Source: Strix aluco (lineage: Eukaryota > Chordata > Aves > Strigiformes > Strigidae). From it: DNA of 64,000 nt. Below, piece after piece: positions 39-64,000 of this stretch; position 1 is the first letter of the stretch; every line of letters starts with the position of its first letter. A program made the translations under genes and the position numbers. The stretch covers positions 9,346,948 through 9,410,947 of the forward strand of contig NC_133948.1 in the NCBI RefSeq assembly GCF_031877795.1, read 5' to 3'. Under the pieces are notes generated by a model that saw only the letters and a program-made list of their open reading frames with translations, was not told the DNA's origin and did no database searches.

Positions 39-210
39 TCTGTGGAGAACTGTGTGTGCATCATGCGGAACCTTTCCTATCATGTCCACAAAGAGGTCCC
101 TGGAGCTGATAAGTACCAAGAACTAGATGCCAGTCAGACTACAAGCACGGGAGGCTCGCAGAAGAAGAAGAAAGACGATGCTGGTTGTTTTGGTGGGAAA
201 AAAGCTAAAG
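39..210 (+). CDS. ARVCF: ARVCF exon: arm-repeat end and basic loop
   Basis: The exon follows acceptor AG at 37-38 and ends at donor gtacgt (211). It starts in phase 0 with SVENCVC and ends after one base of a glycine codon (phase 1). It encodes the end of an arm repeat ([19 protein letters not shown]), then a Ser/Thr-rich stretch and the lysine runs KKKK and KKAK, which form an NLS-like loop in this family. The open frame runs on to 437, but the good donor and the match of the next exon show that this is intron readthrough. Confidence 0.95.
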
Positions 211-3200
211 GTACGTGTTGCAGAGAGCTCAAAACTGGAAGTGGATTTGGGGGTAAATTTTGCTGTGTAGGCCTAGGGCTCTTGCAAGCACATTCATCAT
301 GCTGGTTTAGAATGATGCAGTTTGTGGAGGTACCTGTTTGTGGTGTCATGGCATGTGTTCACCTTCCTTTTTGCGTTACTACTGGATATTTGGGGATTTT
401 TTCCATGATTGCTATAGTTTTGTTTGGCTTGAAATAGGAGTGGTGCATGCTGACAGATGACACTGCTGTTGGACGAAGGTGGACGTGCTCTGCCTCTCCT
501 CTGCATTGCTGTGTTCTTCCATCTGTCAAATCTATGCTTATTCTGCTTGCTTGGCTCCGTAGCATGGCCTCTGGAAGCCAAGCCAGAATGCGTTCATCCC
601 CATGCGTGGTAGTCCTGTCTGGACGTCTTCCATGCCTCCAGCCTCTTACGTTTGAAAACAAACTAAAAGCTTACCCTCCCACTCACAACCAAAATATACA
701 ACCTCCTAATTCTGTCACTCTTTCAGTAATTTAAATTGCAAACATGATTTTGTAGCTTTTAATTGTCAGTCACTTTTAGACCTGTTCTCTCCTCTGGGGC
801 ATGAGTGTTGCAAATGAGTTTCATTACAAGAGAGGATTAATAGTCTCAGTAACCCCCCTTCCATCTCTACTTTAGAAAGAGACACTCAAATTATATCCTT
901 TTTCTTTGTTGTTTTAGAGAAATTACTATTCTAGACTGAAGTCACATATAATTAACTCTATTTTCTGTCTAGGCTCCATTCTTCTCATTTATGTGTACTC
1001 GTATCCTGGCTTACTATTTATAGCCAGATCTAAGCAAGGTTTTGGTCATGGAATGTTCCACCAAACATGGAATTGTTTGAACTTGACGGACTGGGTACTG
1101 CACGTTACTCTTCCTTTTATCTGACCTGTACATGTTATTAAAATGTTATGTGTTTCCATATGTGTTAGGGAAGTCATCACAGTGTGAACTTGCTTTTGCA
1201 GACTAGTCTGTCATCAATTTAAACTGTGTTTAAAATAAAATAAAAAATCGATGGGAATCTTTTAATGACTGGGGGAAAAACTGAAGAAATAATTTTACCT
1301 GGCTGGCCAGCCTGTTCTCACAGTGAATTACTAAAACTTCAGTGTGATACCCGTTGGAAACCTTGAACATGCACTGACTTGAGCCTGTTCCCTGCCACTT
1401 GCAGTCCCTGTTGTTTTGCTGCTTGAGAGCAACACAGTCAGTGAAAACATTTTTAGACATAAAAGCTGTGAGTGTGCACTGTGGGAGGAGGGAAATGTGC
1501 TGATTGAGAACTGTCATCATCCTCTTGATGGCAGTGAAAAGAGAGCACTCTCAGGTGGCTGTCCTTTGACAAGTGTCTGCCTCTTTCCTCTGGGGCCAAC
1601 CTGTATACTTTCTGTGTCTGTATGCCCTGATAGTTTCTGTTTATCAGTCAAAGCATCTGATCATGTCTTTTTGGACAAATTGGTCTCAAAATCATCTGAC
1701 ACTGAGGATGAACCCACAGATTTCAGCGAGCAGTGCAGGCACTTGGTGACAGCTTGGGTTTAGCTCTGTGTGTTCAGCGGGAAATGACAATTTCTGAAGT
1801 ATATTTTAACTTTTTTCCTCCTTTTTGCAGTATTCTTTTTAAGGTGTGCAATTCTTTAGAGGGAAATCAACTGGTAATAATGCTGAGCTTGCAGTTGGTA
1901 GTATGTAGATCAGAAGGATAGAGGGGGACAGGTAGCTGTTGGGCTTAAAAAATAAAAATTGAAATACATTAATAAATGTGCTTTTAAAATCGTAAAGAGA
2001 AGCTTCCTTTTCTCACTATTTATGTGAATACTGATCTGAACCTGCATTAATTTTCTCAGTCTAGGACTTCAGAATAGATCAGTTCTCCCCTCTTGTTCAC
2101 TTAATCTTGCAGTGTTTCCATGTTTATTTTATTTTATTTCATGGTCATTGATCATGGCATTTCAAACACCTCTGCAAAGGGCTAATCATCCTTCTGTCCC
2201 CTCATTTCTGTGAGCACCTTTTCATTTAATGAAAAGAGGAAGAAAAAATTGCTGTGCAGAGAACGACTGGGTTTTTTTCAGCAGGAACAAAAGGGAGAAA
2301 GTGGAATATCTTGTTTTGGTTTGTTTTTTTTAATTGATTAAAGTTCTGTAGTATTCTTGTAACACTCAGGCTTTGAACCTGTTCTGTGAAATTCTGCCTC
2401 TTTGTGACTGTTCCTTTGTATTTTCTTCCTTCCTGTAAATTTTTGTTTTTCTTCTGCTGCTTTTCTGGTAATTAGAGGAGTGGTTCAATCAAGGTGAGTC
2501 TTTGCAATACTTTCTTTTCATCATCGCCATAATATGCTTTGTTCAGCTTTTACATGCAAGGCTAAGAGCTGAGATCAAGGTCTTGTTCATTCACCTTCTC
2601 CTCTGCTCCCCCAGTGCATCCACCTGTTCATTTCAGTAGGCATGGAAATCCTCAAATTGAGTGAGCATTTGCAATTTGGTCTTCCCACACTGCAAATAGA
2701 AAAGACAAGGTTTATTTATTCCTGGTGTAGGTGCAGTAAGGGAATTGATTTGCAACTGGCCTGATGACCCCATGACAGAGGGAACACTTAAGTGTGCAGG
2801 TTGCCTTGCCAACCCTGTTGTATCAAAAAACTGGCTTTGCTAGCTGGTCTGGGTAGCAGTAGCCATGAAGGCTTCGCAGCTTGGATGTGTATTCTCAGGG
2901 ATCCTTGGTATTTTGTTAGCTTGGGCACACATGCCTGGGCTGCTATATCTTTATTACTGGCACTCAGACTAGCTAGACGAAGCTACCCCCAGTAAATGCT
3001 GCGGGGAATACGCCTTTTAGTTTCTCATCCCAGCCCAGTGAGTAAAATTGCAATTGGAATACACAAGGCTGAGGCTAAACTTTGCCTCCCTGGCTTCTCG
3101 GCTGGGAAGTTGCTAGACTGTGAGTGCCCTGGAGACTTCCAGTGTGTTACTGAGACTGACTTAGGCGTAAAGGCAGGGTCATTTTCAGTTTGTGACATTT

Positions 3201-6200
3201 GATTCAGATCAGTGGGTTCTGGAGGTTGAGCCAAAGGAGAAACATTGGGAGGAAAAAAAAATCAAGAACCACCAAAAAAACCCCACAAACCTAATTGCTC
3301 CACCCAACAAATGGTGCTTAGTAGTGTTCTGCAAGACACTACTTTCAGCCCATGACTGGTGAGCCTGGGGAGGATGGGCATGTTGGCAAGACAGAGCTCA
3401 GCCCTTGCTTTCTGTTGCTCCGCTGCAGTCCGGTTCAGTGGGTATAATAACAAGCACAGTATTGACTGTTGGGGGCGGGGGGGTGTTGTTACGAAGAATC
3501 TTTTTCCCTTCAACTTTTTTAACCAGAAAGAAAGCATTTGGGAATTAATCCTTCAGCAAAAATGGTCTAGCTGAATAGCTGTTTTGATTATTCAGTAAAG
3601 CAAAATGACATTTGAGGAAGATCAACAACAACATTAGTGGTTAATAACACTGGGTCACACTTCAAAGTCCATACTGAGTTTCTGACAGATTGAAAATGCC
3701 AAAGGTCATGTTTTGGTTGTTTCTTACATAATGAAGGGGGGGGGGGAGAGGAAAGAATTTTAATCCCACTGTTTCAGAGACTGTAAACTGCATCTTGCAC
3801 AAGCAAGTCTCATGTCAGGCAGTCTTCCCAAACCAGAGTGCTGTGCCAATTCCTACAGCCAGGTCTCATAAAACAGACCTGTCAGCAGGCATGTTGAAAG
3901 CTGTCTGTCTCTTGGCAAAGTTCGGAGCTATGCTTCTGAGCCAACGTTATTATCTTTTCTCTGCCATACCTTGGGCTGCAAAACTTGGAGAGCAGGGAGA
4001 GGCATAGATGGTCAAAAATTGAAATGTACAAAACCAGGATCTTAAACTTCTTTTCTACTGCTAGTGTGGCCATTTCAGCACCCCTGTGCACTAGCATTAC
4101 TGACAGGCTTGAGTGACAGATGGGTGGTGGTAAGAGTTACAGAAGCTGGTAGTGAAGCTGGTTTTCTCATGATATCGGTCAGGCCAGGAGATGGCTGAGA
4201 GATTTGCAATTGGTAAGCTCTTGAACTTGCTAAATAGGGTCACCTTTTTAGAAACTGCAAACCAGTATTTGTGGATCTTGTAAAAATCAAATGGGAAAAA
4301 TACCAGCTGGGCTTCAGATTGAAACCTTTGCCTTTTAGAAGGATTTCTTTTGGAATCTTCTTGCAGCTTCGTCACCTTCTCTGTATAGGAAAGCCCTGCA
4401 AAATGTAGGTGCTTTAGGTATTTCTGAACCTGGCCCTTGCTCAAGTAATTTGTAGAGTTGAAACCCCCTTGGTCAGAGTTCTGTGTTCTGAATTGCTTCC
4501 ATTTGTAAACAGCTGGCAGCTTCTGATTTGAACAGATGTGGGTTTTGCCTTCGAGGCGGGTTGGTTTCTGAAAAGACTGAGACACAAACTAGCAAAGGCT
4601 TTATAGAAGATGGCTGGTATTTGCAGTCTGGCCCAGAAATTGGGAAACAGTGACTGAAGATCACAGAGCACAGGTGGAGTGTGCTGTCTTAATGAAAGAT
4701 GGTTTAGTAAGTAGGCAGCTGCTTCTGCATTGCTACATGAAAAGATGTAGCAGCCAGCACTGCTCTCCTGGACAATCTCTTCCTTAAAAAGTTGTGCACA
4801 AATACATACTGCTTGCCAAACGTTGCACTAGAAAGAAGGGACCTCTTACTGTGCCATCTCAATTCTGCAGGGCTAATAGAAGTTCCAAACCCCAACATTT
4901 AAATTACAGAGAGAACTTCTGAAATGAGTAGTTGTGTTGAATAGGGTCTGGCTCTCCAAGTAAATGTTCTGAGGTTTAAACTAGCTAATGCTAGAGACAT
5001 GAAATGCAGGGTCATGAAAAAACAGTGTGTCCTACTTGTAGATGGGATGGAGTCATATTTATTGCTCTCCCTTAAGTCTATAATCTTTCCTAAACACTGA
5101 CTTCCTTCAGTGCTTTTTTTTTTCCTCCCCCTGCCCTGCTTTTTCCTGTCAATGCTCTAAGGGTCAAGAAGGGTTTGCAGCCAGTAACCGGGTTCAGCTG
5201 CCATTATGAAATGCAGTGTCCTTTGGTGATGCACAGCATTTTTTCTTTCTGGTATTTGGTTTCCCAAGCAACGTGTTTCTTGTTCTTTCATGGAACAAAA
5301 ACTTGATGGAGGTCTGCAAAGTGCAGATAATTCCTGTCCCTTCCTTTGGAAAAGATGCCTTTCCAAGGAGTGGCATGGTACCTGGTTGTGTGACCTTTTG
5401 GCAGCTTGGATGGGCTTTTTCATACTTTAATTAAGCAAATTACTTCAGATGAACAGAACTTCTAGATGCATGTTTTGTTTTGCACAGTAGTTAAAGCTGG
5501 CTGGTATTTTTGCAGAGTGTTGGCATTTCAAAACAGAAGTGTGTGATATTTCCAAAGAAAGGGAGGGGATGGAATACTACCTTGATGTTTGGTGTTTTTT
5601 CCTTTTGATGCTATTTCTAAATATTCCCATTGGTATTTAAAAGCTCTATTTCTTCTCTGCATAGTACTGCATATGTTCATCCTCTTCTCAAGGGGAAAGG
5701 TAGAGTAGCCCATTGAATTCACTGTGTAGGAGCTGTATGGGCTCCGTGCTATAACAGGGCAGGGATTGGCCTTACCCATTTTGTGACCTATTCCCAGTTA
5801 AGGTCAGACTAATCTCCACACTGCATTTTCAAAGACCATTTTCCTGTTTGCTTTTAAGCATCCTGACTGGTGGAGATTTCTGCCCTTCTTATAAACCTCC
5901 ATTAACAGCCTGGTAGAGTCCCTGTTCAGAAGCCACCTCTGGCAGCTTAAATTGTCATCAATTCAGAACAATTCATCCCATCACACCTGCCTTCCCTGCT
6001 CTTGAGGGAGAGGGACTAAATAACTTGATTTTCCCCCTCAGAATAATTTGGGAAAGCTAAATTGTATACTGGTGTCCTCAGAAGCCATGCAGATTCCTGC
6101 ACTTCCTTCCAAATCTCTCTCTGCTGTCTGTACTTCTCTGATGCTTGCTTATCCCACAGCATCCGTACTGGTTTACCCAAGGCAGTGTGTCTTCTTGGGG

Positions 6201-9200
6201 GGAGAAGATGGGATGAAAATTAATCCTTCCTTCCCCAGCTGTTTACATAACCTTGATTTCCCAGCCCAGCTAAAACTAAAGTCCAGGTTTTGTTCTGCTT
6301 TCTATGAAGAACTGTATAAATTAAAGCTGATGTAATGGTTTGAAACTGTCTCTTAGCAAAGGTATGGAATTATTTTCATTAGCTTCTAATAAATAGTCAA
6401 AATGGCACTGTATTGATTGAAGGGCAAATCAAGGTCAATTTCTTGGCTCCTGACTGTACAATATATTAAATCTAGGCCTTCCTGCCTGATAGTTGCACTG
6501 AGAATAGAGGCTGCAAAGTCTGTTGTTTTTTGCTCTGCTGCTCAATTTCTGCTTCAGCTAAGCTTCAGGTCAAAATTTCTCTGAAAACAAGAAGTCAATA
6601 CTAGCCTTCTGAGTTTTGCCAAGAAAGGAAATGGCATGATTTTCCAAGGTTTTAAGCACTCTTAGAATGTTTGTGGATCAACCTGAAAGTAGCACAGATT
6701 TTTGTCCCTAAGTTGCTCATGCTTAAACCACAGCTATGCAGCTGGATTGCAAGTCAGATATGTACAAATGTGGGTAGTAGTATTGTGATTTATATTCTGA
6801 GTCTATATCTTCTCTCATCTTGTAGATGCACATGACAGTAACTTACCTGTCAGTATGCTGACAGTCTTTTCCATCTGTTGTCTGGTTTTTTTGCACAGGA
6901 AAGAAGAATGGAGATTTGGACAGGAATTTTGATACACTTGATTTGCCTAAGCGGTCTGAAGCAGCAAAAGGTAATGCTAATGTTTGTGCTTTTGGAAATA
7001 ACAAGTAGTCTGGGAGCTGGAGGCTCTTAAAGGAACTTGAGATGTGAGCACATTGGTCTGATCTCTTTGTTTTGTATCCAGTTAATTGAAGTAATGGATG
7101 TGTCAGTGCCTGCTGTTATCTGGTATTCAATACTGGATATAACTAGCTTTTATATAAAGCTGCTGAATTGGTGGAATCTTGAAGAAGCCCATATGATTTG
7201 GTGTTAGGTGATTGTAACTCCATAGAGGGTTTAGTGTATGCTCTCTTCCTTTATAACTCCATTTTCAAATCGCCTGCACTAGACGTGAGTGTAAGGAGTT
7301 ACAAAATGCATTAAGTGAGTGTGTGTATCACTAACCTTTTCCCTTGCCTGGCATCTCTGTAGTTCTTCAGTGTTCCAATGAACTAGAGAGTGACAGCAGG
7401 GAATAAATTCAGGTTTTTTGTCTTTGCTCCTAGTCAGTCTTCTGAATATGGTATTCCTCCATGTCTATAGTGAGTAGTACTTGTAGTTTTCCAAAATCAG
7501 GAGGTTCACCGAAAAATTGTTGCGCATTTCAGTTTTGTATTTCAGCTCTAGTGCAGGTAAAATCTTTCACAAACAATCTGCATTCCGTTCCTGGATGTGT
7601 GGTACTCTTTTTAATTGGAGATTAGGAGATGATTTGGGATCTTGTTGGACTTCTTACAGCATTGGACAGTGTTTTGAAACTCGCACAGATTTTCATTTGA
7701 AGTGTGGGCAATGACATTGCAAAGATTCAGCCATTGTCATGGCAACTACTGTGGTGCCACCCTGTCAACCTAGCCTTGCAGGAGAAGCTCTTCAATAGCA
7801 CCCTTACCTTAATGATCTGTGACTACCCAGAACTACCTGAGTATTCTTCAACAGGGAAATCTTAAACTTCCTGCATCACTTGTACAATTTCAGAGAGTAT
7901 GAAGAGACAGTGTAACTCAATGGAGAGATCCTTGGACTTGGGATACCTGAATTACACTACTTTAGTAACCTTGATCGAATCAACTAATTTGTGCTTCACT
8001 TTCCTTATTGTTAACTGAGGGCAGCAACAGAGGCCATATCTAACATCCTTAGAGAAATACTGATAGTCAGTATCGGTATAATAATTGTACGTGTAAAGTG
8101 CTGCACTCTCACTTAAATTCATGGGCAGTGAAGCTCTGATGATGTGCAAACTAATCCTAATACATAAATGGATCTAATCTATTTACAGACATTCTTTACA
8201 ATGGGTACAGTTTCTAGGCTAGTGTCTAAACACTAATTTTCATTTGGTGCATTATTGCAGAAGATGCTAATGCACCTCTTAAAAGGTGTAATGCCATCCT
8301 AATTTGGAGAGTTGCAGGAAACTTGTAAGCAACCTTCACTTTAATGCCATCATTTCAGGGCTGGGCACTGATTACACTGCAGAGCAAGGAGACATCTTAA
8401 AGATGCAGAAAAATAAAGGAATGCAAAATGTAGCGAGGGCTTCAGCACTTTCATTCCTTTCTAAATGTGATTGGAATGTAGGTGCCACTAAAGGGGAAAG
8501 ATGAAAATCAAGGATTTCTGCAAAGAAATAGATCTTGCATAACTTTTTTTAAAATAAGATAAAAATCTTTCATGTGGCTCTGTTAATAGTAGAAGTGTTG
8601 TGGCATATCTGATGGGAGATGTATCTGTCTCTTTGAGTTTACACAGCTCATTATTAATTGCTAGAAATCACACACTCTTGAAGAGATTTTGTTTGATTAT
8701 TTCAAGATACCCCCATTTAATCTAAGATGAATAGATTTTTAGTCTGACTATATATCTCATGCATGATTAGGGCAGATTAATCCCACAGCATTTTGAAAGA
8801 AGCCCTTTGACTTGGAAAAAGGAATGAGAAACTATTTGATTGTGTGCTAAGAGTAAAAACATAAATTCAGTGATGTGGTTTTGTTTACTTTTTTACTAGT
8901 AGTTTCCTGCTAAGCATCTAGTTCCTGGATATTAAAGGTTCTAACAAGATTGCTAGGACTTTGAGTTGTTCAGTAAGATAAGAAAAATTAAATTGCAGTT
9001 TTAAAGCTCTTAAAAGCTCTGGTCATGTCTATACCATAGAGTATAATTGGCTCTGATGAGATCAGCTCTCAGCTGAAGCAGAACCTGGTTACTAACACTG
9101 AAAAATCGTGCGAGTTTTAATGATCAGAAGCACTCAGTTTGAGTGACACAATGAAGTGCTATTTCAAAAATCAACAATTATGGATTAATCTCTTTCATGT

Positions 9201-30200: not shown

Positions 30201-33200
30201 GCATTATTGAAGAGAGAAGGTGAAGACATTTGTGAGATGCTCTTACATTAGTAAGTAGGAAAAAGGAGAGGCTTTCATGCATGAAGAGAAGTAATGACAG
30301 AAAGCGGGTGGGAGGTGCGTGACTGGAATGCAGCTCTGTCCACAGGAGGTAAGCAGAGGTGAGAGGGTTGTTCCATCTTGGTATTTATACACAGTGAGGT
30401 GCTGCAAAGAAGGGTGTCCAGTCAAAAAGGAACGTACAGACTGACAGAAAGTGCACTTAAATAACAGGAGAGGGTGAACATGTGGGACTGTTTCCAAGTA
30501 TGCTAAAATTACAACTAGGCACTTTAAAACAAAGCCGTTGGAGAAGACTGGCTGAACAATTGCATACTATTCAACCACAGGCGAGTCTGAGCTCAAATAC
30601 AGAAGCAGTAAATGTTCTGTATGAATATTATCTGTTAATGAACCTGCTTTCATGTCTTCTGCTGATCTGATTTACATTTCAGCAAAGCTTCCTTAAAAGA
30701 TAACAGTCAAAATTCCAGTAAGCTATCCTAAGAGATTTTTCAAGTGTTAGTGTTCAGGAAAGGAATACTGTACGCTTATCAGGCAGCAGTGTTTTTTTTC
30801 TTGAGGAGTTCTTAGATTGCCAATTCACCTTCTGAAGTGGCAGAGGAAAAAGGTGATATGAAGGTCATATTGGAGTCAGATAATCACGATCTTATTCAAG
30901 GAATGGAGAAAAGCTATACAACTGTTCATGCTTCATGTATTAAGTAACTACAGTTTTTCTCAGCATTCAATATAGAGGGCAGTGATCCCAATGCAAGGAG
31001 AGGACATTAGAGAAGAGGAAAGTAAGTGGTATGGATTCACAGGATGCCTTTGGGGATTGCCATCTGTTGTGGCTTGCACATATCTGTAGGGTGTCATGTA
31101 GCAAGCAAGTGGTGGCATTAAAACCAGTCACAGACATGGAGCAGGTTAACTATCCAGTCGTTTGAGAAGAATGCAAGTGTGCTGGGATGCCTGTGAGAAG
31201 CTGAGCAGGGAAAGTATGAGCCAGCACATGGGAGCTTATGGATCCCCATGCATAGATCGGGTTTTTTGGTATGGAGCAAAGAAACACTTGGCTGATGAAG
31301 TGTGTTTTCTTGCTTTCAATGGGATAAATAAGCCCCATATATCCAGGGGGTTAGCATGTTTATGGGTAGTGTTATACAAGGTTTAAAGTATTCAGTTCTG
31401 AGATCTTGACTCACAGCAATAACTGGTATGAAAAATATGAAGAAACAGTTAGATTTGAAATGTAAGGCTTTAATTTCAGAAAGCCTTTAGCAACGGAGAA
31501 TTTTTGAAAGAAAAAAATTAGTAGGATATCCTATCCAGGATAGGATAGCATTGTTAAGTTTTCTTGCTTCTAGGTTTGATCTGAGATGTCTGAAATATGA
31601 TAATCTGTGATATGTGCTGAAAAATATGTATATGAGAGATGGGTGATTTTGAGGAGAAGGTACTGAAGAGAGGAAGTAATTTGTGTTTTTAGGTTTCCTG
31701 TCTTGCTAGTGGAAAACTTGCTTTGAAATATGCTACATTTCTAGGACAGCATCTTGATATGTGAAAAACATTCTTTTCATGTGTACAAATAATAAAAAAA
31801 ATTATTCTGCTCAAAACAAGCTTCAGATTTCCTCTTTGCCCAAGCTCATTTGCACCTTTATGCTTTCTTTTATGTCATGTTTTTCCAGAAATCCTTTCGT
31901 AGGTAGTGCCTGCTGAACTTACTGCAAATACCCCAAGAGCCACCAATCCAGAAATATCTTGTAGCTACAGTGACTGCAGATGAGTCTGTGTTGACCCTAG
32001 GTGGCTTGTGCCTTCCTACCAAAACACTTCAGAGGATTTAGTTTTTTGTTCACATAATCTGAACAGCAGCCTGACCTTTGAGGTTGTGTTTGTCTGGCAA
32101 GTCCTTTAACTGGATGCTTGCATGCTCTTCCCTAATCAGAGGAGTGTGTCGTGCCACACTTAGTGAAGAAAGATAGATAAAAATTGCTTCAAAATATGCT
32201 ACAACTTGAAATGATGGACTTCTTGCCTAAGACCCCCTTTTTAATGTGGGTAGATGGATAAATCCTAATTCTATGGATGAGCAAGTCAAGACATGGATGC
32301 TACTGTCAGTTAGCATCACAGAAGGAGATGAGATCCATGGTAGAGCTGGGAATAGTTCTCCTTCCTGTCATGTTTAAACTGCGAAGCTGATACAGTGACT
32401 CTGGGGATATTTAGTTAACGTATGTGTCTGTCACAGTCTCCCAATGTGGTATGATGCCAGTGTATTTCTTTACCTAGTATTAGAACTGGAGTCAGCATTT
32501 CTCCCTTCCCACTGGGGATCTTAGTCACTTTGATGTCTTGCATCTTTCTTTTGTGACCTAGGTGTGAGAAGGGGGTGGCTGATGTGGTTGTGTGGCTTGC
32601 TCTTTTTGGCCCTGTTGGTGTCTGTAAAGATACTGAGATAGATCTGAATGAAAACAGGAGTGCAAGGTGAATTTGCAACCCAGTCTAGAGATGCAAAGTA
32701 AGAATTGTTGCAGACAAAAATTGTGTATTGTCACCTTGTTATTACATGCATATAATCAGCCTGCTAGGCAGTATATAACATCGCACAGATTTCAGAAAGA
32801 ATTGTCAACCTGAAGACAAGCAAAGGGACCTTCAGCCCAGGTGAATGTCCTGTGCATGAGTTCCCGTGTGCACCATTTTCAACAACTGTGGATAAAATGT
32901 CCTGGACGTGGCAGAAGCCCTTCTTCCTGTGGTGTAGCTTTTTCTTGGCTGTTCTCTTACACAATGAAATAAAGGTGCGTTATGTGTTTATTCATACATT
33001 GTCTTCTCTGCTTCTCTCGCTCCTTTTTCCTCTTCCCTCACCTGCAGGCTTTGAATTACTGTACCAGCCAGATGTGGTCCGACTGTACCTCTCCATCCTC
33101 ACCGAAAGTCAGAACTTCAACACTCTGGAAGCTGCGGCAGGGGCTTTGCAGAATCTCAGTGCTGGCAACTGGACGGTGAGTGCAGTCTTCTCTTTAGTCT

Positions 33201-36200
33201 CTTTTGTTTTCTTTGTGTAAGTAAAGAACAAAGCTATGTGCCATTATAAGTGTGCTGTTACTTCGTGCATTTACATCTCCTTTAAAAATGAATGATGTGG
33301 GGATTACAAAGAAATTATTTCCATCTTATTTGCCCACTTAAGATGTTTTGCATCTTCTGGACAGATGGTGTTTATGTAGTGGAAGTGTCGCTGAGCTTAT
33401 GACGATTTAACCATGAGCAGGTTTTACTACTTAAACTACTTAACCATTGCTTTGTCCATTCAGAAAAGCCTGTTGTTAGATGATTAAGTGTCCTGAATAC
33501 TTAATTGATTGGATCCTCAGATTTCTTAGGAAACGGCACTCCAAAGTGTCCTCTGATATCCCCTCTGAAGCATCCCCAGCACTAATCAGGCAGTTCTCTC
33601 AAAGGTATGCCTGATCACTTCCAGAACCATGTGGCAAAGTGGGACTGATCAGCAGCCTGAGGATCAGCAGGGTGGTAGTTCATAGCTGTCTTGAATACAG
33701 TTTATTTTAAAATCAATCATGAAACAGAATAAAAGCATTAAATTGGAGGTAGGAGAAGATAACAGATGCCTTGGATGCTTTACTGTTCCCTCCCAATGAC
33801 CGCTTTTTTCCTAATCCAGAGGAATGTGTTTTCACACTGAGTGTGTACAGAACAGAAACTGGCAGATGATGCTCCTTCCTTCTATTTCTGTCCTCTTTCC
33901 CCAGCAGCTTGCTAAGCAATAGGATGAACTTCTACATCCTTTCTTCCTTGGTGCTTGATGAACTTGAATGATGGGTTAGGTTATAGATGCATCAGCACAC
34001 ACAGCCTAACTAGTCTTTGCAGGGAAAAAAATAAGTTACAGCACTGAAAGAAGTTCCGGGGCAAGGAAAGGGCAGGTATATGAACTCACAATACCTTTGT
34101 GTTGTTTCTTTTCCCTTGTGTGTTCTGATCAGTGGTCCACGTACATCCGTGCAACAGTGCGGAAGGAGAGAGGCTTACCAGTGCTCGTGGAGCTGCTCCA
34201 GTCCGACTCCGACAAGGTTGTGAGGGCTGTGTCAATTGCCCTGAGAAACCTTTCCATGGATCGTCGCAATAAAGATCTTATAGGTATCTTCTGAACTTTT
34301 CTAACCAGACTGGGATCTTTGATATCCTTGGGAGACCTCACATTTTCTGTCACTTGTGCTGAGGATTCGTTTTGTATGCGGTTTCCATCCATGCTATCTA
34401 AGATTACTCTGTAGCCATCAAGTGGAGGGCTGTCATTTCCAGCCCATTCAAACAAGCCACAGGCTGAGGGAAATCACTAACTCAGGAGAAAAAACAAATG
34501 TAGATTTTTTTTTTTTTTTTAGGGGAGGGGAACATGTGTAGGTGTGCAGAGGATTGGGTGGGTTAAGAGGTTTCTTGTCTCTTCCTTAGCCCTGGCTGAC
34601 ATGACACTTGTGCTCCTAGTCACACATGGTGGTTACAGAGACATTGCTCCTTAGGCCTACTGTTTAGATTAGAGTGGGGGTCTTGCCCTTAGCATGCAGA
34701 GCTAACTTAGGGAAGCAGAGTGGGTTCTAAAGTTGTCCCTTTTTTCTTGCTGCCTCTTCCCCTTGTCATACTTTTGTGTGGTAGGTAGAAGCTGGACACC
34801 AAACAACTTACTCTTCTTCAAGTTAGTTCTTCAGCAGTGCTCACTAGCTCCTATCCAAGGGGGTAAATAAGCATTCACCTGCCCATAAGCAGGAATCTTG
34901 AAAGATTCAGCTGTGAGTTGAGTTTTCCTCTAGATGCTTCTGTATTTACCTGATGTATTTGATTTAAAATATAACCTCGTCAGGCCAGGAAATATTGGTC
35001 ACATGTTTAGGGCCATCATGGAAGTAGATAGTAACAAATTGTAAGATTCTGCCTTAATATATCAGGTTCTTTTTTAATAGTTCAGAGGTGTAGCTAGGCA
35101 AATGGCACAGACAGACATCTGGGAGTGATAAACCCTGGACTCCTTGTTTTTTCTCTAGTACTATACATTGAGAAGGCTAACGGCACCCAGGAGGAAATAC
35201 TCTTACCTTTGTTGGGGGAAGGTTAATAAATGCATGGCTGCACACCTTGCCCCAGAAGGCCTATTACAAGGCTAAGTTGAGTAAGCCATGTGCGTGTATT
35301 AGCATGAATATGTGGCATTAGCAACAGCTACTGGATGCTTTTTGCCTCAGGCATTGCAAAGTATGATAGACGCTGGCTGTAAAATTCTCAATAAGACTGC
35401 TTTTTTTCTTTCCCCTCAATACCTTTAGCATTCATGATGAAGGACTTTGTCTTGGGTATCAACTCTCAATCACCTTGAAATAATGAATGATAAATACACT
35501 GTTAAGTTACAGTCTTGGGGTTCAAAACACGTGCAGTATGAAGTTTTTCGACGTGGCAAACACCCTTGAGTTTTATCATTCAGGATGGGAAGCTGAAATT
35601 ATTATTAGGGCTGACTAATGGTATCTCTTCCCCTTACCTAGGTAGTTATGCCATGGGTGAGCTGGTAAGAAATTTGCCCAGCAGGCAGCAGAGATCTGCA
35701 AAGAACCTGGAAGAGGATACAGTGGTTGCAGTGTTGAATACTATCCATGAAATCATTACTGACAGCTCAGAAAATGCAAGGTCTCTGATCCAGACACAGG
35801 GCATTCAGAAGCTGGTAGCTATCAGCAAGTCAAGGTAAGTGACAGTTGAAAGCAAAATGCATAAGAACTCACTGCAAACATGAAAATGTCACTACAAACA
35901 GCAGCTTTTGCTCTGTGAAAGTATTCAAGCATCCTAACCTTTCAGAGCCTTTAATTTCAGAACAGTTAATATATATATGCAGTAAAAACAGTCAGCACCT
36001 TTAAGAGGTTTACTTGATTAAAAAAACCCAAAAGTTAATTGAGTAGTCACTTCAGTCATGTTAAGACATGCTCTCCCCTTACCAGATACATCTTAGCACC
36101 GTGTATGCATTTAGCAGACATCATTTGCAGCGAAACCATGATCTTTATTTTTAGCGTGGGAGGCTTTTTTCCTGTGGCAGTGTTCCATTCCTGGAGTGCC

Positions 36201-39200
36201 AGTGATGAAATCTGTTTCTTTTAAGTAAAATGGTTAATGATGTGCAGTAATCCTTCTGGCTGAAGGGCTGGTGGTAGTGGTAATTTGAAGGGACAGATTT
36301 TCACTCTGCAGTTCTGTTGAAAACTGCGTTCTGACTGCTTCAGAGAAAAGTTTGTTTCATGTAGTTTAGCCAGTTAGACATGAGCTTCTTTATAGGTGTG
36401 TTTTCAGCAAACTTTTGGGAGAGTAGCTGAAGACTTTGGGTTGCATTGTTATGAAATGAGTCAACCAAGAATCTAGCCCTGTATTATTTTATAGAGAGTG
36501 CTTGTGTACTGACTTAGTAAGGAATGGATAAAACTTCATTTTTTTTATAGCTTATTTTTTGCTGCCCCAAGTTGCTTTGTAAGGTATTCTAAACCATGAA
36601 GTAACTTCACTGAATTGTGAGGAATTGTAAGTTGGGGTGGAGGGTTGAAAAGTGGCTTAGAACCTGGTTTGGGGGTTTTTTTCCAAATAAATCCAGGCAG
36701 GATGGAATCCATATGTCTTTTGTTAATGACAACTGTGAGACAAAAGAGTTACCCTGGCCTCAGTGCTTGACCAGCAAGCAATACATATGAAAACCCAGAA
36801 ATTTGCACAATTTACAACTTTTTGTTTGGATTTTTTTTTTTCCAGCAAATACCCATAGATATGAAGAAGTCACTGAATGATATCACATATGCTATAGCTT
36901 ATATGTTCAAAGAGTAGCTGTGTGGAGTACTAGGTATCTCCTGGATATTTTTTTGGTGCAAAGAAGTCAACATATGAATAGTCTTATATTGCTTGATACT
37001 TAAGCTCTAATTTTATCTTGCAAATCAGCCAGTCTCCCAGAGAAACAAAAGCAGCATCTCACGTGCTTCAGATGATCTGGAGCTATAAAGAACTACGAAA
37101 TGCCCTGCAGAAGGATGGGTGGAACAAATCACACTTCCAGGTAAAGATGCTGAATCTTAGATTTAGTTAGTAGTTATGGAAATGCCTGAATGGAAGATGT
37201 CCTAACTTATACTACAGTCCGATAGATTGTGGGCTTTGGTTCTGTTCTTCTAGGTGTTAGAACAATGTATTGTAGTCTGTTCAGTCACAGCATCATGCAT
37301 GTACTCGCTGGGTATGTTTTTCAGTGGTCTGTGAAATGTAACTCTTCAGGTTTTGGAAGTATGCCACCTTGTATAGGCCAAATGCCCGTGCTTTACTGGA
37401 GGAAGAATTAGCATGTCTTTCCTCAGTTGTCTCTTACTTGAAACGTTCCATCTAGCAGTGTAGGGCAGACACCTGTTCCTGATATGCAGCCTCCTCATCT
37501 TTCCTGGTGAAAAGGTTGTGCTCCTTTTACAGACCAACAATGCTGCCATTTAGATAACAGGAAAAATATTCCATCAACAAATCTGTATGAAAATGAAAAA
37601 TACTCCAGTGCCATATTATCAACGCAAGGGGGGCTTAGCAGCATTCCCTAATCTCTCTCCATACTGTTGGTTTGTTTATTTTTCTTGTTCAGTTTCTCTG
37701 AGTAGCAATCTCATATTTATGTGATTTTTGTCTCGTAGTCTGTTTCTGCAACTCCAAAGGGTTCCAAAGGTACTGCTGGCAGGTCTGGCTACGATGACAG
37801 CACTTTGCCTCTGGTGGATAAAAGTCAAGGTCAGTTCTGCTCTTTATCACTTCTGTTGTGCTTTGCTTGCTTGTTTTCTGGATTTGGTGCATCTGTGTTG
37901 TAGAAGTGATAGGGCCAGGAGTGAGGGGGTAAAAATATGTTACCTATGTGGGTGGTACTTTTTACCCCACAATTCCTATTAGCTGGATATGGATAGTATT
38001 CCCTCCTTTGCGAAATGTTGTTTTCTCAACTTGTATGCAACATAATCAGTTAAATCTTCCTGAGAAAATTTGGAATAGACATGAATTGGAACTTTGAAAG
38101 AGGAGAACAGCCCTGTTTGTTATATATTAATAAATCTAGCCTTGAGCCAGGCAGTGGGCTTGGCCTTACCCCTACTCAGTACTGGAGTCTTTTCCTTTCT
38201 GAATAAATGTGCCTGTTTGGTAGTGCTTCTTCCTCTACTGTGCAGATTTTTTCATTGGAGATGGTTTATCCAAACACTAGCTAAACCTGTCTGTGCTTGT
38301 TTATCAGGCCTGACACAGCCATGCCAGCACTGGTGCAGCTCCAGCTTTAGTTTCGTTATGATTGCTTTGTCTCTAAATCTGGTTCTAATTTCTAACACTC
38401 AGATGTCAAAATTTCTTTTCAGAAATCTTTAGTCTCCTATGGCAGAGTTTGCCATGTTGCACTTTACCTGGTTTAACTGCAGATTACTGCAGAAAAGGCA
38501 GCCCCACACTGCCTTGCCTGTTTCCACCTTCCCTGTCTTTGATCAAATCTGACAAATTACGCAGAGGATGACTCGGGTCAGTTTGCTGATCTGACAATAA
38601 ACTTCTTGTTTTCTTTGTTGGTTAGCTTTCTGTTGGCTCAGTAAGCTGCTAGATTGTGTGCCATGTGAAGCTGCACCCTCACTTATTTTCTTTCTTTCCT
38701 ATTCTGGAGAGACCAGAGAGAAGCGCGTTAATAGCGGTAGGTAGTCCAAAGCAGAACTGCGGTTTGTTATCGCTTGGAGAGAGAGTTCTATATTACAGTG
38801 CCAAAGCAGGAAATATAATGTGTGCTCTCGAGAGCTTAAACTCCCCTTTATGAGTGGATAACAGTTGAATAGTTTGGGGTTTTTTTTACAGTAGTCTCTG
38901 TGTTCAGTACTTTACGGACCTCTCTGGTCCTGTGACTAGTTTAAAACTACCAGGTGATGACAAAAGCAAATGTGACTCAAGTTGTTTCAATATTTCTGTT
39001 TTATAGATAATGAGAAATCTGGGAGTCGTGATATGATACCTATGGATGAACTTGGCCCAGGTAAATTCAGTCATAGATCAAACCCTCTGTCTGTTTCAAT
39101 AGAGCACACTGTCACTCACGGGAAAGTTCAACTATTTCTCTAGGTGATACTCTTTCAGATGGAGAAAGCTGACATTTAAAAATAGAGTATTACCTTACAA

Positions 39201-42200: not shown

Positions 42201-45200
42201 TTTTATTAGGTCAAATCATGAACTTCCTATCTCTGCTGCTGCTTGCTTATCTTGACAGAGTCATAGCACAGTGTGTGGTTTTTAGAAACATAATCCATTA
42301 GTACGGATGTGTGCAGCACTGTTAGCATGCAGACCGCACAGCACTGGGCTGACAGTATGAATTGCAAAATATGTTGGAACTTAGATATTAAGAACAAAGT
42401 TCTTGCCCATTCTTTGTTGTTAGATTACTGCCATTGTGCAAAAGCTTGATCTTCCTGTTGCTGCTGTCCTGGCTAATTTTTTGTGATTGCAGTCCTTACT
42501 TCTGACCTTGCTCCCTGGGCAGTATCACAGCTGTCCATGCTTCACTTAATAGCTGTTGCTTTCTAGGGGTAGGTTAAAGGTTTCCTTTGTATCTTGACAA
42601 TTCATTTAAAAAATGTTCGTGGATCATCCATGATGATGGCACTACAAAAATGCAAAGTGATCCATTACATCATTATGAGTATAATTAATATTAGATTGTA
42701 AAAAGCTACTGCTCAGTTGTGAGTTTGATTTTTTTTTTTTTTTTTTTTAGGGGGGGAGTCGGCATGCTTCCATCATTTAAATACGTACCTGTATGAACTA
42801 TTTACTAAATAAATGATGAATCTTTAGATTAGGATATGACTTACTTGCAGTATTCACGCCTATCATTTGAAAGAGAATTATTGGTTCCTCCACAAATGCT
42901 GGCTGGGTAGATGGATGCAGCTGGTAGGCTTTAGGTTTTTTCCTTTTTGTTCAAAAAGGATAGCCAAGAATGTTAGGCATCTTCATTGTCAACAAAGAAT
43001 TGTAAGTAAAGCTCTGTGTAGCAATTATTTTCATGCTTTAAGATCTCTGTACTACAGGTATAACTCAAAATTCTTGTTATGTTTAGGTAGCGTAGTTAAA
43101 TAATCTGTTACTATCCATGATGTCATAAATATATGCTACTTCAGGTGCTTGTTGCAGGTCTGTGTGCACTTTGATTCATGAGATACATAGGAAGACTACA
43201 GCTCTTTTAAAACTAACCTGGCTGTGACCAACATAAATACCATTTAGGGTCCTGCTCTGCGACTGTGTTTGGTACAGGTCACTCCAGCTGTGTGTGCTTT
43301 TGTCATGTGGGCAAACAGTGCCTCTTTATGCCATGGGAACCCCGCAAAAAGCATGACCGACTTTTTCTTAATGACCTGTTGCAAGCAAGGGATGAACCGA
43401 GAGAGGAGCGTTTTGATAGTTTATGTAAAACCTTTTTGTGGTATTCTAAGAACCCAGTTTGTCAGGACATGAAAACATTAATGATCCCTCAATTACATAG
43501 TGGAAGACAAAAGCCTACAGGGAGCTATAAATTTGAGTGTCATTTACCCCAGATTACAGTGCTGTCAGAGCAGTGCAGGAGAGGATCTATTTGTCACTGA
43601 TAATGAGGGAAATTTGATGCATCAGGAAAATAAATTAAGATTTGCATTGGCTGACAATGATTCAGAGCAAAGGTTCTGAAATAATTAGAGCCATTTCTTT
43701 ATAAAACCCTCTCACACTTTTCTTCCTGGTGTTCATCGTGCTTTCATATTGCTTCTTAGTTGTCAGGAGAAAAAGCACCAACAGGTGCTACTTTGTAATG
43801 AAAGACAGTCCAAGCACAGCGGGGTTTGCATCAAGATTCCTTCCAACTCGACAGGGCCTTTTTCTCAGGGCTCTGAAAGGGACTCTTCCAAATTATTGTC
43901 ATGTCCTGCTAGTAGTCGGGCTCAGGAAGAGCGGGAACATGCTGCAGAGCATTCAGAGAATGAACACAGCCAATTAATCAGGCTGCTAAGCAAGGAACAC
44001 AAGATTTAGGCTGAATTTGGAGCTCATTAGCCACAGGGCACAAGATGAAAACTTGCTGCTTTTCTTGGGCACACTAAAAACTGTGGCAGGCTGGGATGAA
44101 AACAGTGCTGCTTGCTAATGAGTGCCAGCATCTGGCAGTGATATAAAAAGAGGGCTTTTCTGTTTTGTTTTAGGCTGGTAAAAATGAAAATTCAGAGCTG
44201 GAGCGCATGTGAAAAGCATGCTGCCAGCATCTTTGGGTTGCGATGGTGTATTTTCCTGTTTCTTTGCTGAAGAATTCTGCTTGCATCAGCTCTGGTTTTG
44301 CTCTTATTTATGCTTCATGCCTGATTGTCATGTTATTTCTCCTCAGATGGGTACTCCACCATCGATCACCGGGACAAGGAGCGCAAATACAAGACCAGTG
44401 ATAACACGGGGGATGCCTCGGAGAAAGAGCCTTTAAAAGTGAGCTTCCTCTTACTGCTGTATGCTAGTTAGTGCCTGTAAAAGAAAGGAAGCCTGATGTC
44501 CTCAGCAAATGTAGATATTCACCAGGGGGCTGTAAAGGGCTTTGGTGTTGTTAGGGTTTTTTTAGATAAAGGCACCATTTCATAACTTAGTACTTGGCTA
44601 ACTAGAAATAAAAACAAAATGCTGCCTTCCAGTGCAGGAGCAAATGCAGGCAATCACTGTATTCTTGTAAATGGATGAGGTTGGAAAAATAGAAAGTGTC
44701 TGTTCTGTCACCCTTGTCCAGGCAGCATTCCCTAGCCCTAAAGTGTGTAAGTGTGCTCAGACTTTGTTTTGAGAATAATCACTTCAGACTGTCACACTGC
44801 TTTATTGTTTTCAGTATAAGAAGTAGATGTGAGCTTGTGTGTCTGTGTGGTGAACAGTGGTTGTTTCCCCAATACTCATTCACAGTCCTGACGGTGGACC
44901 ATGGGCATAAGCCAAGGAGATGGAGAGGAAGGGAGACATATGCATAGTTACGTGTGTGCCTTCTAAAAACAAATTTAGACAACTTCATAATTTAAAAAAA
45001 AAAAAATCTTCACAAAGCTCTTTGTGTTGTGGGTTGTGCATGAATGTGGCTTAGTAGGCTCTGTGTAGTTTCTGCTGCATTGCTATGCCTTTTAAGTAGA
45101 CCTTTTTAAAAGTTGCTTAATGCTGTGGCCATCAGTTCTCCCTGGCCTCAAAACAAGCTTGTGTTTTCCCCTGGGGGAGTAATTTCGAGGAGGAAAGGGA

Positions 45201-58448: not shown

Positions 58449-61400
58449 CTAGAAAGAAGAGAAATTGCTTCATGGTGGCTGTTCAGCAGACGTTGGCTTG
58501 AATGTGACGTGCTTTCATGTCATACTCAAGTGCCTGCACCAAAAGCCATTGTACTACAGGTTTGGAGGGAAGAGAGACATGCGAGAAGCTGAGTAACTCT
58601 CTGATCCTTTGTGGTCATGTTTAATATGCTGACTTCTTCTGTTAACACAGTCAGCAGAACATTAGAGATGCTGATAACACGTTGGGTCATTCAGGTTCTG
58701 ACATAGCAAATCAAGTGCAGTGAAGGTGTGCAGTTTGCTGCTCTGATTGTTTCCAACTATGTCTACATGATCAGTAAGATGGTTTTGTTTTGATGCTCAT
58801 GACTAATGTTTGAAAACTTTTTTAACATCACATTAAAACGTTGTAGTAGCTCTTTAAGATCACCCCAGAGACTGGCATGTACCAGTCTCCTTTGGTCAGT
58901 TTCAGTCAAACTCCAAAACCACTACATGAATAAAAGGGATTTTCTGTGCTTGTTTTTCTTTCATCTTGTACAACTTCGTGCCACGTTGTTCAGGAAATGG
59001 GCATGAAGCAGGGTTTGTGCACAATGAAGATCACTCTGACAGATTTCCACAAGATGTAATTAACTTGCAGTATTCACTTCAAGTGCAATGTTTATCCTCG
59101 GTAAACCTACAAACCTAATTTTTACTGGTATTTTTGTCTAGCAGAAGTTGCTTATCTGAGCTTACCAGCTGTTTCAAAACAGCCTGTAGTTAATCAGGCT
59201 GGTTGTTATCCTGTGTTTACAGGCAGCAGTTGTAGCCAAAACATGGGGTGGGTTTTGTCTCTCCCAGTATGTTAGAGAAGCCCTCTTGATGAGTGAGCTG
59301 CAACGGCTGTTTAGCTTACTGCTCTTGCCTCTGGTGACTGAACACCAGTCAGCACAGTAGAAGCAATTTTAGAGACATGGCAAATATCCTCTGGTCTGTT
59401 GCACAGCTTATAGAAGCCTACAAGTGACAACATGCTGTGTTTTCCACTGGTCATCAGGATTTCAGGTGCTCTTTGTGACAGGCTATTCTAGAAGTGCATG
59501 AAAAAGAATCTGCTGTCTGGGCCACTTTCAATATATATTTAATCTGAGTATTTTATATTTCATATTGCAATACATGCCAAAATTGCATGTTAGAAGGTTT
59601 GTAACATCTGAGAAAATGTGGGGATCCTTTCTTCTTCTTTCTGGTCTTAATTTCATAAGGGTTTTTTTAAGCAAAGCAACTTTGTCACAGTTGCATCAGA
59701 CTGACCACCACGATGGAACTAAACTACCTGTTTGTTTTGGCTGTGTTGTGAAGGTTAAGCTCTGATAAGGATGTGCTAGCTCTTCCCAGTAGAAAGAGCT
59801 CAGTCATCCTTACACAGCCAGTTTAAAAGAAAACATTCTCTGGGTACAAAATAACTGTAGGGGGGGAACATTTTCTTCAGCTACTGCTGTGTAAATTCAA
59901 TACTGGCTGTTCATAACCCCAAACAAATTTCCTTTCCAAACAGCTATCTGGAGGACAGGGCTGAAATTAAAAAACAGGGGAGCCTGGATGAGAAAATAAT
60001 GTTGTGGTCCTCAAGCAGGGGTCAGGAAGTAGTTGGCAGGTTCTCAATGTAAGAGGCAGACTCAAAAAAAGTTGATTTATTTGTGAAGAAAATAATTGAA
60101 AAATGACATTTCCATACAAGTAGTTAGGCAGCTGTAGAAAATTTTATCAGCCTGCAGCTCCAAAGCTAGGAGAGTATCTCTATGTGCTGTGTTGATAGAT
60201 ATAGATGTTGTGAATCTCAGTTATTTAACACTTGAAAATACCTTCCTATCCAGATGTCCTCTAGCAGTTACCTCACTTATCATTGCCTGCTGCTGTTACA
60301 GCCAGCTTGTTTTGTAATGCTAACAGTAATGGTTAAGGCGGGTTGGGAAGAAATGAGCATAATTTTTCCACATTCAGGGCTGGACATAGAGTTGGATGGC
60401 ACTTCCCTAGCAAGTGCCTGACTGGGGCAGTCTACACTCCTCCAAAGGTTGCTTTGCAGCCGGTTAATTAGGTAGTGTAAAGACTCCCATAAAGATGATA
60501 CCCAGCTGTGCTACCAAAATAGTATTTCATTGAAAGGCTCTGCTGGCACCACAGACCCAGGTAAAAAAAGGGGTACTGCAGCTGGGATATGCAGGTCCTA
60601 AGTCTCACCTGCTCCCAGGATCAGGATGTTTTTGGGTCAAGTGTTCTGGTTAGTGACCATGCAGACACTCCTTCTAGGGAGCGTAAGGTCCAGACCATGC
60701 ACTCCTCTAGCTGGGATTTCTACTCAGGCCCATTTGTTCAGGAAACAAAATGGTTCAACGGTATTTGCCAAGTCCTGAGCTATGTAGTATTAGCAGTTGT
60801 CCTTGACATAAATTTGGGATCCTGTCCCCCAGATCCTCTTTTCTTGTAAGGCTCCTATTTTGGTTGCCATTCATGGTACAGACGATGAGGTCATTCATAA
60901 AGACTATAGGCCTCACAGACATTAAGGCATTTGCTACTTTACTTTTAAGACTGGAATTGTGCAAACTGACCTGAAGCAGGATGGTGTCTGGTGTGTATCT
61001 GTCTTTCCAGTGGTCCAGGAAGACAAAATCCAGAGTATCCACTTCGTATTTTTTCTTCAGCTGGGGAATAATTTCCTCTGAAGGGCCTTCTAGGAGTTTT
61101 ACCTGAAATGCAAATCCATCTGATGAATTGTGAACCATTAAGAAAACACATGTGCCTCTAGCTCATTTTAAATTGTGGCCAGACATCAGCGATCCTGTTT
61201 ATACCTCAATATTGCCTCAGTTGAATTATTTCATAGATTTAGATCAAGTGTACTTTTTTCTTTTTGACAAATCAACTCAGTTGTATTCTAAAATATGGGT
61301 TTGGGTGGGTTTTTTAAATAATATCAGAAAAAGTGACCTGTTGTTTCTGTTGGATGCTGTGCTCCTTTACTGGAAACATGGGAATCTCCTGTTGAAAACA

Positions 61401-63263: not shown

Positions 63264-64000
63264 CTGAATAAAATGGAAATAGGTTAACTTTTGACAAAAT
63301 CAAACTGGTTCACATACAGAAGAGCAAGTTAGTGACAAGAAACTTATAAAGTCTGTGTACTCAGTCTCTCGGGACATTCAAAAATTAAGGGTTGATGTCA
63401 AATTATATATTGTATCCTTTGCAAAGTGACTTATCTGTCACCAAGATGACCATGGACATTCTAAGTTTCAAAATTCAAACTTTTAACTAAAAAAATCTTA
63501 CATTTCTGAGTAAGGAAGGGCCTGAATTAACTAAAATATTTATAGTGTTAGAAGGGAAAAATGCACTGTTTTTTCCCAAGAACTTATTGCAGAAACTGGC
63601 CATATTTGTGAAATGTATAACTCCTGAATTTTGAGTGCTCATATTTGTTGCAAATGTTACATGCAGTAGTCTGATACAAAATTTCTTATCCTAAATACTT
63701 GTTTTTAAAGGGAAAAAGAAAAGTCTAGTTATAAAGTTGCAAAATATTTGGATTCACTAGATGAATTTGTGGGATGGAAAACATTAGTCAATTGTTAACA
63801 ACAAAAAAATGTTTCCCAAAAGAAGTGACAGTGTACTACATTCAGTCCTTCTGAAGAAAAGGATTTATTTGTGAGAAAACTGTGTCCTCTTACTTGTATG
63901 ACTAGAAACTGAATAACTAATCTGAAAAAGTACTTGAAGCATTTTTACACTGAGCCATGGAATTTTTCAATGTACATATACATTTCATTACATGGTATTT
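63264..64000 (-). other. COMT upstream intron (partial)
   Basis: AT-rich sequence to the window edge. I looked for the preceding COMT exon (ending in a ...DKKG-like segment) and did not find it, so it should lie beyond 64000. Confidence 0.75.

What the first reader, a model, noticed from the sequence alone, without database searches (positions are those of the whole stretch)
2476..2493. 18-nt in-frame ARVCF microexon splitting the basic loop
Eighteen bases with a proper acceptor and a strong gtgagt donor sit in phase 1 between two phase-1 exon edges. Inclusion turns KKAKGKK into KKAK-EEWFNQ-GKK, interrupting the NLS-like lysine cluster as exon C does in p120-catenin. Conservation of both position and length across paralogues would suggest a selected switch in nuclear entry or partner choice. 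ORF-based annotation would miss it.
Basis: partly seen in the sequence, partly recalled or inferred. Interest (0 to 1): 0.75.

Follow-up and report, generated by a model that had tools for sequence, protein, structure and literature searches.

The report
ARVCF counterpart of p120 exon C
A bird ARVCF gene carries a real 18-base exon that can add six amino acids to a positively charged loop of the protein; it matches a known optional exon in the sister gene p120-catenin and is already present in database ARVCF proteins from fish to humans, so it is genuine but not new.

Summary
Window 2476-2493 is an 18-nt, phase 1-1 exon with a weak acceptor and a strong donor, between ARVCF exons 39-210 and 6899-6970. 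It turns KKAK-GKK into KKAK-EEWFNQ-GKK. Of 286 possible frame-keeping mini-exons in its 6,688-nt intron only this one has sites as strong; 0 of 300 shuffles gave an 18-nt equal. The exon is already in public ARVCF proteins: the slot is filled in 96 of 118 relatives (best-listed hits of an insert-bearing query), including six birds, reptiles, human (EEWFHQ), coelacanth and teleosts. p120-catenin has DEWFSR-type inserts in the same slot in 26 of 120 listed proteins; there exon C blocks nuclear import (PMC4996431 passages). So the exon-C reading is right, but annotation has not missed it. One difference matters: ARVCF has a second basic run (KKKK) upstream that the listed p120 proteins lack. A loose bipartite-NLS pattern survives in 97 of 100 insert forms, so a simple nuclear-entry switch is unproven. 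No RNA data were available.

The parts
2476..2493 (+). 18-nt cassette microexon of ARVCF, phase 1-1, encodes EEWFNQ between KKAK and GKK
   Evidence: orthologous insert in database ARVCF proteins
39..210 (+). upstream ARVCF exon (ends [16 protein letters not shown], phase 1)
6899..6970 (+). downstream ARVCF exon, 72 nt, itself phase 1-1 ([24 protein letters not shown])
2436..2475 (+). upstream splice region: pyrimidine-rich tract with TGCTGC at 2455-2460 (-21 to -16) and a weak aattag acceptor; SRRM3/4-like layout
   Evidence: layout described in passages of PMC5247714 and PMC10551640
2494..2499 (+). strong donor gtgagt
   Evidence: 12.0 bits
33048..46591 (+). eight further ARVCF coding exons (33048-33175, 34133-34283, 35642-35834, 37029-37140, 37739-37829, 39007-39060, 44347-44438, 46490-46591), ending ...PVDSWV stop
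   Evidence: Pfam Arm repeat

Best explanation
This is a conserved cassette microexon of ARVCF, homologous to exon C of p120-catenin (CTNND1). Shown: the exon, its frame and its conservation in database proteins. Inferred: it is small and has a weak acceptor, so it is skipped by default and included where an activator such as SRRM3/SRRM4 binds the UGCUGC upstream, most likely in neurons. Inclusion places an acidic-aromatic hexapeptide (EEWFNQ) inside the basic cluster KKAKGKK of a flexible loop that projects from the Armadillo domain. By analogy with p120, where the same kind of insert blocks an NLS and mimics loss of the RhoA-binding motif, inclusion should lower importin and/or RhoA binding and bias ARVCF towards junctions and cytoplasm while leaving cadherin binding intact. 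In ARVCF the effect on nuclear entry is probably only partial, because a second basic run (KKKK) eight residues upstream is untouched.
For: Exon anatomy and open frame in both forms. Uniqueness among candidates. In-slot hexapeptide in 96 of 118 ARVCF relatives listed by an insert-bearing query: EEWFNQ 58, EEWFHQ 32, four rarer forms 6; 16 are clean skips and 6 are otherwise. CTNND1 with DEWF[SAT][RK] in the same slot in 26 of 120 listed proteins, among them crow, killdeer and a turtle; 92 are clean skips, 2 otherwise; shark CTNND1 P0088 has EDWFSR. p120 exon C peptide, block of nuclear translocation and of branching, rescue of embryoid-body formation by exon-C forms, and mouse brain as a rich source (PMC4996431 passages); CTNND1 exon 11, which I take to be exon C, is called predominantly neural and NLS-disrupting (PMC7372553 passage). 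The loop is low-confidence (pLDDT under 50 at residues 502-546 of hoatzin P0206, insert at 528-533) inside a confident Arm domain, and it has no counterpart in the crystallised p120 chain 3l6x.
Against: No spliced read or tissue was examined. Two or more UGC within -30 to -9 occur at 39 of 439 AG sites of the same intron, so that motif alone is weak evidence. A loose bipartite-NLS pattern survives inclusion in 97 of 100 insert forms. The 962-residue human form is called the canonical long isoform (PMC13089046), which does not fit a strictly neuronal exon if the six extra residues are this insert. The RNA support of the database proteins, many of them predictions, was not checked. One listed ARVCF protein (vole, P0158) has a five-residue insert (EEWFQ), so length is not fixed in every entry.
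Confidence: 0.75

Rival explanations
1. The microexon switches partner binding (RhoA or another loop ligand), not nuclear entry: the upstream KKKK run together with KKAK keeps a bipartite import signal in both ARVCF forms.
For: Upstream basic run of three or more in 114 of 118 ARVCF and 0 of 119 CTNND1 proteins with a readable loop. Bipartite pattern in 97 of 100 insert and 18 of 18 other ARVCF forms, 0 of 119 CTNND1. In p120 the same basic motif is also a RhoA-binding motif (PMC4996431 passage).
Against: The bipartite consensus is a loose pattern recalled from memory and was not tested experimentally; in p120 the same kind of insertion did block import.
Confidence: 0.35
2. Constitutive or tissue-neutral tiny exon whose six residues are kept for loop shape only; skipped forms are minor or prediction artefacts.
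For: The long human form is named canonical (PMC13089046); the insert varies little.
Against: Clean skip forms are 16 of 118 listed ARVCF proteins although the query carried the insert; weak acceptor; a 956-residue human form is in use.
Confidence: 0.15
3. Chance splice-site-like sequence, not an exon.
For: No expression data here.
Against:: unique in the intron and conserved in slot and sequence from fish to mammals.
Confidence: 0.02

Closest known systems
p120-catenin (CTNND1) exon C
   Same: Six residues (18 nt), same slot between KK(A/G)K and GKK, [DE][DE]WF core
   Different: Different gene; residues 5-6 differ (NQ/HQ versus SR/AR/TR/SK); ARVCF has an extra upstream basic run that the listed CTNND1 proteins lack. 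The exon phase in CTNND1 was not resolved: the printed oligo fits phase 0 or 1
Human ARVCF forms of 962 aa (O00192-1) and 956 aa (E9PDC3)
   Same: Difference of six residues (PMC13089046 passages); human ARVCF X1 carries EEWFHQ in the same slot
   Different: The bird has EEWFNQ; that the six-residue difference is this insert is inferred, not read
SRRM3/SRRM4-dependent neural microexons
   Same: Very short, frame-keeping, weak acceptor, UGC near a pyrimidine tract (PMC5247714 and PMC10551640 passages)
   Different: Neural inclusion and SRRM4 dependence of this exon not tested

Membership tests
p120-catenin exon C-type microexon | 18 nt, frame-keeping, between KK(A/G)K and GKK | tested here: met
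p120-catenin exon C-type microexon | [DE][DE]WFxx peptide conserved in orthologues and paralogue | tested here: met
   96 of 118 listed ARVCF, 26 of 120 listed CTNND1
p120-catenin exon C-type microexon | alternatively spliced | tested here: inconclusive
   in-slot insert and clean skip both exist among database ARVCF proteins (96 and 16 of 118), but no RNA was read
p120-catenin exon C-type microexon | blocks nuclear import / RhoA motif | not testable with these tools
   seen for p120 only (PMC4996431 passages); the upstream basic run of ARVCF argues for caution
SRRM3/4-dependent neural microexon | UGC just upstream of a weak acceptor | tested here: inconclusive
   UGCUGC at -21 to -16 and a weak acceptor, but 39 of 439 AG sites in the intron have two or more UGC in -30 to -9
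SRRM3/4-dependent neural microexon | neural inclusion, loss on SRRM4 depletion | not testable with these tools
   no RNA data
ARVCF gene | Arm repeats, SWV PDZ ligand, high identity to bird ARVCF, methyltransferase (COMT) neighbour | tested here: met
   98.2% over 394 aa to turkey, Arm, SWV end, methyltransferase hit on - strand at 63040-63309

The most novel reading that the evidence does not exclude
An exon-C-type microexon older than the split of ARVCF and p120 that has drifted in function: in p120 it closes a single basic NLS/RhoA motif, while in ARVCF an added basic run preserves a bipartite import signal, so the same six-residue insert would change RhoA or splicing-factor partners of nuclear ARVCF instead of its entry.
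Probability: 0.25. Interest if true: 0.45.

Novelty: already known. Interest (0 to 1): 0.25.

Why it matters
[quoted passage not shown] A conserved six-residue switch in its basic loop would be a compact handle on that balance. Human constructs of 962 and 956 residues are both used in one paper (PMC13089046 passages), so knowing what the insert does bears on such work.

Tried and rejected
Rejected: chance splice-like sequence and 'unannotated' status. The peptide alone is no proof: EEWFNQ also occurs in mouse keratin 10 (PMC3339034 passages). Another look-alike in the same intron, ERWFSK at 4694-4711, has no AG just upstream and is followed by TAG; I take it as chance. UGC count was not striking by itself. 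Rfam gave no hit at gathering scores. Of ten paper searches, six looked for ARVCF text on this exon or its splicing, one searched the peptides, one ARVCF with splicing factors, one CTNND1 with microexon and one the SRRM4 motif. I found no passage that names an ARVCF exon C, but only some listed papers were opened, and three older papers that I asked for by id are not held, so this is no claim of absence from print. One search had a fault (only the longest spacer was tried for the bipartite pattern, giving 0 of 100 insert forms); one search corrects it to 97 of 100. CTNND2 and PKP4 loops of vertebrates were not tested.

Bias and dropped rows: one search used an insert-bearing query and listed 120 of 1,275 hits, so the share of insert forms is no inclusion rate; two of the 120 (P0004, P0007, unnamed source, both skip) were left out of the 118. 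Of the 118, 96 are in slot, 16 clean skips and 6 otherwise: four with an EEWF insert in altered surroundings or length (P0136, P0158, P0167, P0169) and two with other letters there (P0159, P0210). One search counts the first four as insert and the last two as no insert (100 and 18). One search scored only the 7,996 candidates sharing most words and listed 120 of 2,891. Of 120 proteins listed (220 in all), eight show an insert-like hexapeptide by pattern (six) or by reading (P0025, P0088); in two of the eight (P0066, P0068) it does not sit in a normal loop; many of the rest skip it or lack the region.

Full report
What is there. The + strand of the window carries the 3' part of ARVCF. Eleven exons join without a frame break from 39 to a stop at 46591, giving 394 residues ending in PVDSWV. 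The second of them is the reported one: 2476-2493, AGGAGTGGTTCAATCAAG, between aattag and gtgagt, phase 1 on both sides. With it the loop reads KKAK-EEWFNQ-GKK, without it KKAK-GKK. The window protein is 98.2% identical to turkey ARVCF over 394 residues and 97.0% to hoatzin over 334; the loop strings of hoatzin and of the owl Otus sunia printed read the same as the window's. I infer a bird.

Chance. With splice-site matrices recalled from memory, the acceptor scores 1.9 bits and the donor 12.0. Of 286 AG..GT intervals of 3-30 nt in multiples of three in the 6,688-nt intron, only this one reaches both. Of 300 resampled introns, 0 contained an open 18-nt interval as good, and 0 contained an 18-nt AG..GT interval whose peptide was as close to DEWFSR. 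A review describes neural microexons as having weak acceptors with UGC motifs bound by SRRM4 (PMC10551640 passages; also PMC5247714 passages). TGCTGC lies at -21 to -16 here, and by the positions printed none of the other ten ARVCF acceptors has two TGC in -30 to -9. But 39 of 439 AG sites in the intron do, so this is a pointer only.

Relatives. A search with the spliced protein listed 120 of 220 hits; eight of these 120 carry an insert-like hexapeptide, among them yak ARVCF (EEWFHQ), teleost ARVCF, and shark and goby CTNND1. A second search with the yak loop listed 120 of 1,275 hits. Of 118 of these (P0049 and P0121-P0237), 96 have a hexapeptide exactly in the slot: EEWFNQ 58, EEWFHQ 32, EEWFHE 2, EDWFHQ 2, EEWFHP 1, EGWFHE 1; 16 are clean skips and 6 are otherwise, one of them a vole protein with five residues, EEWFQ. 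The insert forms include killdeer, manakin, quail, turkey, owl and hoatzin, turtles, crocodilians, lizards, a caecilian, coelacanth (EGWFHE), ray-finned fishes, rat and human isoform X1. The listing favours insert forms because the query carried the insert. A third search, seeded with CTNND1, listed 120 of 2,891 hits: 26 of the 120 carry DEWFAR (11), DEWFSR (10), DEWFSK (4) or DEWFTR (1) in the slot, 92 are clean skips, 2 are otherwise. So slot, length and core sequence are shared by the two genes, and the exon is likely older than their split. Vertebrate CTNND2 and PKP4 were not tested, and the exon phase in CTNND1 was not resolved.

Function known for the paralogue. In p120 the six residues of exon C interrupt the RBD2/NLS motif. 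A reporter with the interrupted NLS no longer enters the nucleus, and exon-C forms lose the branching phenotype as the 622-628 deletion does, yet they still rescue embryoid-body formation, which in that study needs E-cadherin binding. [quoted passage not shown] Another paper calls CTNND1 exon 11, which I take to be exon C, predominantly neural and NLS-disrupting (PMC7372553 passage). For ARVCF, a 2026 paper uses human forms of 962 and 956 residues (PMC13089046 passages). The six-residue difference fits this insert, and rat and marmot proteins of 962 residues carry it, but the identity of the six residues was not read.

Where the insert sits. In a model of hoatzin ARVCF (P0206, 804 residues, mean pLDDT 64.2) the Arm repeats are mostly confident and residues 502-546 are below 50; the insert is at 528-533. 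The p120 crystal chain 3l6x has no residues matching residues 41-84 of the window protein, which hold the loop. The insert therefore changes a flexible loop, not the Arm core; that cadherin binding stays intact is inferred.

A difference from p120. Of 118 ARVCF proteins, 114 have a basic run of three or more within 16 residues upstream of CF, as the window does (KKKK); 0 of 119 CTNND1 proteins do (one of the 120 gave no segment). The pair KKKK...KKAK fits a loose bipartite NLS pattern (two basic, spacer 10-12, three of five basic) in 97 of 100 insert forms and 18 of 18 others, and in 0 of 119 CTNND1 proteins (correcting). This suggests that the insert may not close nuclear entry in ARVCF as it does in p120. 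The pattern is recalled and loose, and I saw no experiment on it.

Verdict. A real, conserved, exon-C-type cassette microexon; ordinary in that its orthologues are already in the databases. Which partner or compartment it controls in ARVCF is the open and testable part.

Noticed in passing
window 6899-6970: The 72-nt exon after the microexon is also phase 1-1 and so skippable in frame. Fish proteins show the other combinations: P0009 and P0027 lack both, P0036 and (unnamed source) P0064 have EEWF(S/N)Q joined straight to GL(D/E)LLYQ, so the loop may be a two-cassette module.
   Followed up: partly
window 39-210 (KKKK of QKKKKDD): A basic run upstream of KKAKGKK, present in 114 of 118 ARVCF proteins and in 0 of 119 CTNND1 proteins with a readable loop.
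   Followed up: partly
window 60755-63309, - strand: COMT-like exons lie tail to tail with ARVCF: 63040-63309 hits Pfam Methyltransf_3; 60755-61162 looks COMT-like by reading and recall only and had no Pfam hit.
   Followed up: partly
window 4694-4711: Second DEWFSR-like reading (ERWFSK, score 25) inside the same intron, without an acceptor next to it and followed by TAG; probably chance.
   Followed up: partly
window 6971-33047: A 26-kb ARVCF intron separates the basic-loop exons from the following Arm exons; not scanned for further microexons.
   Followed up: no
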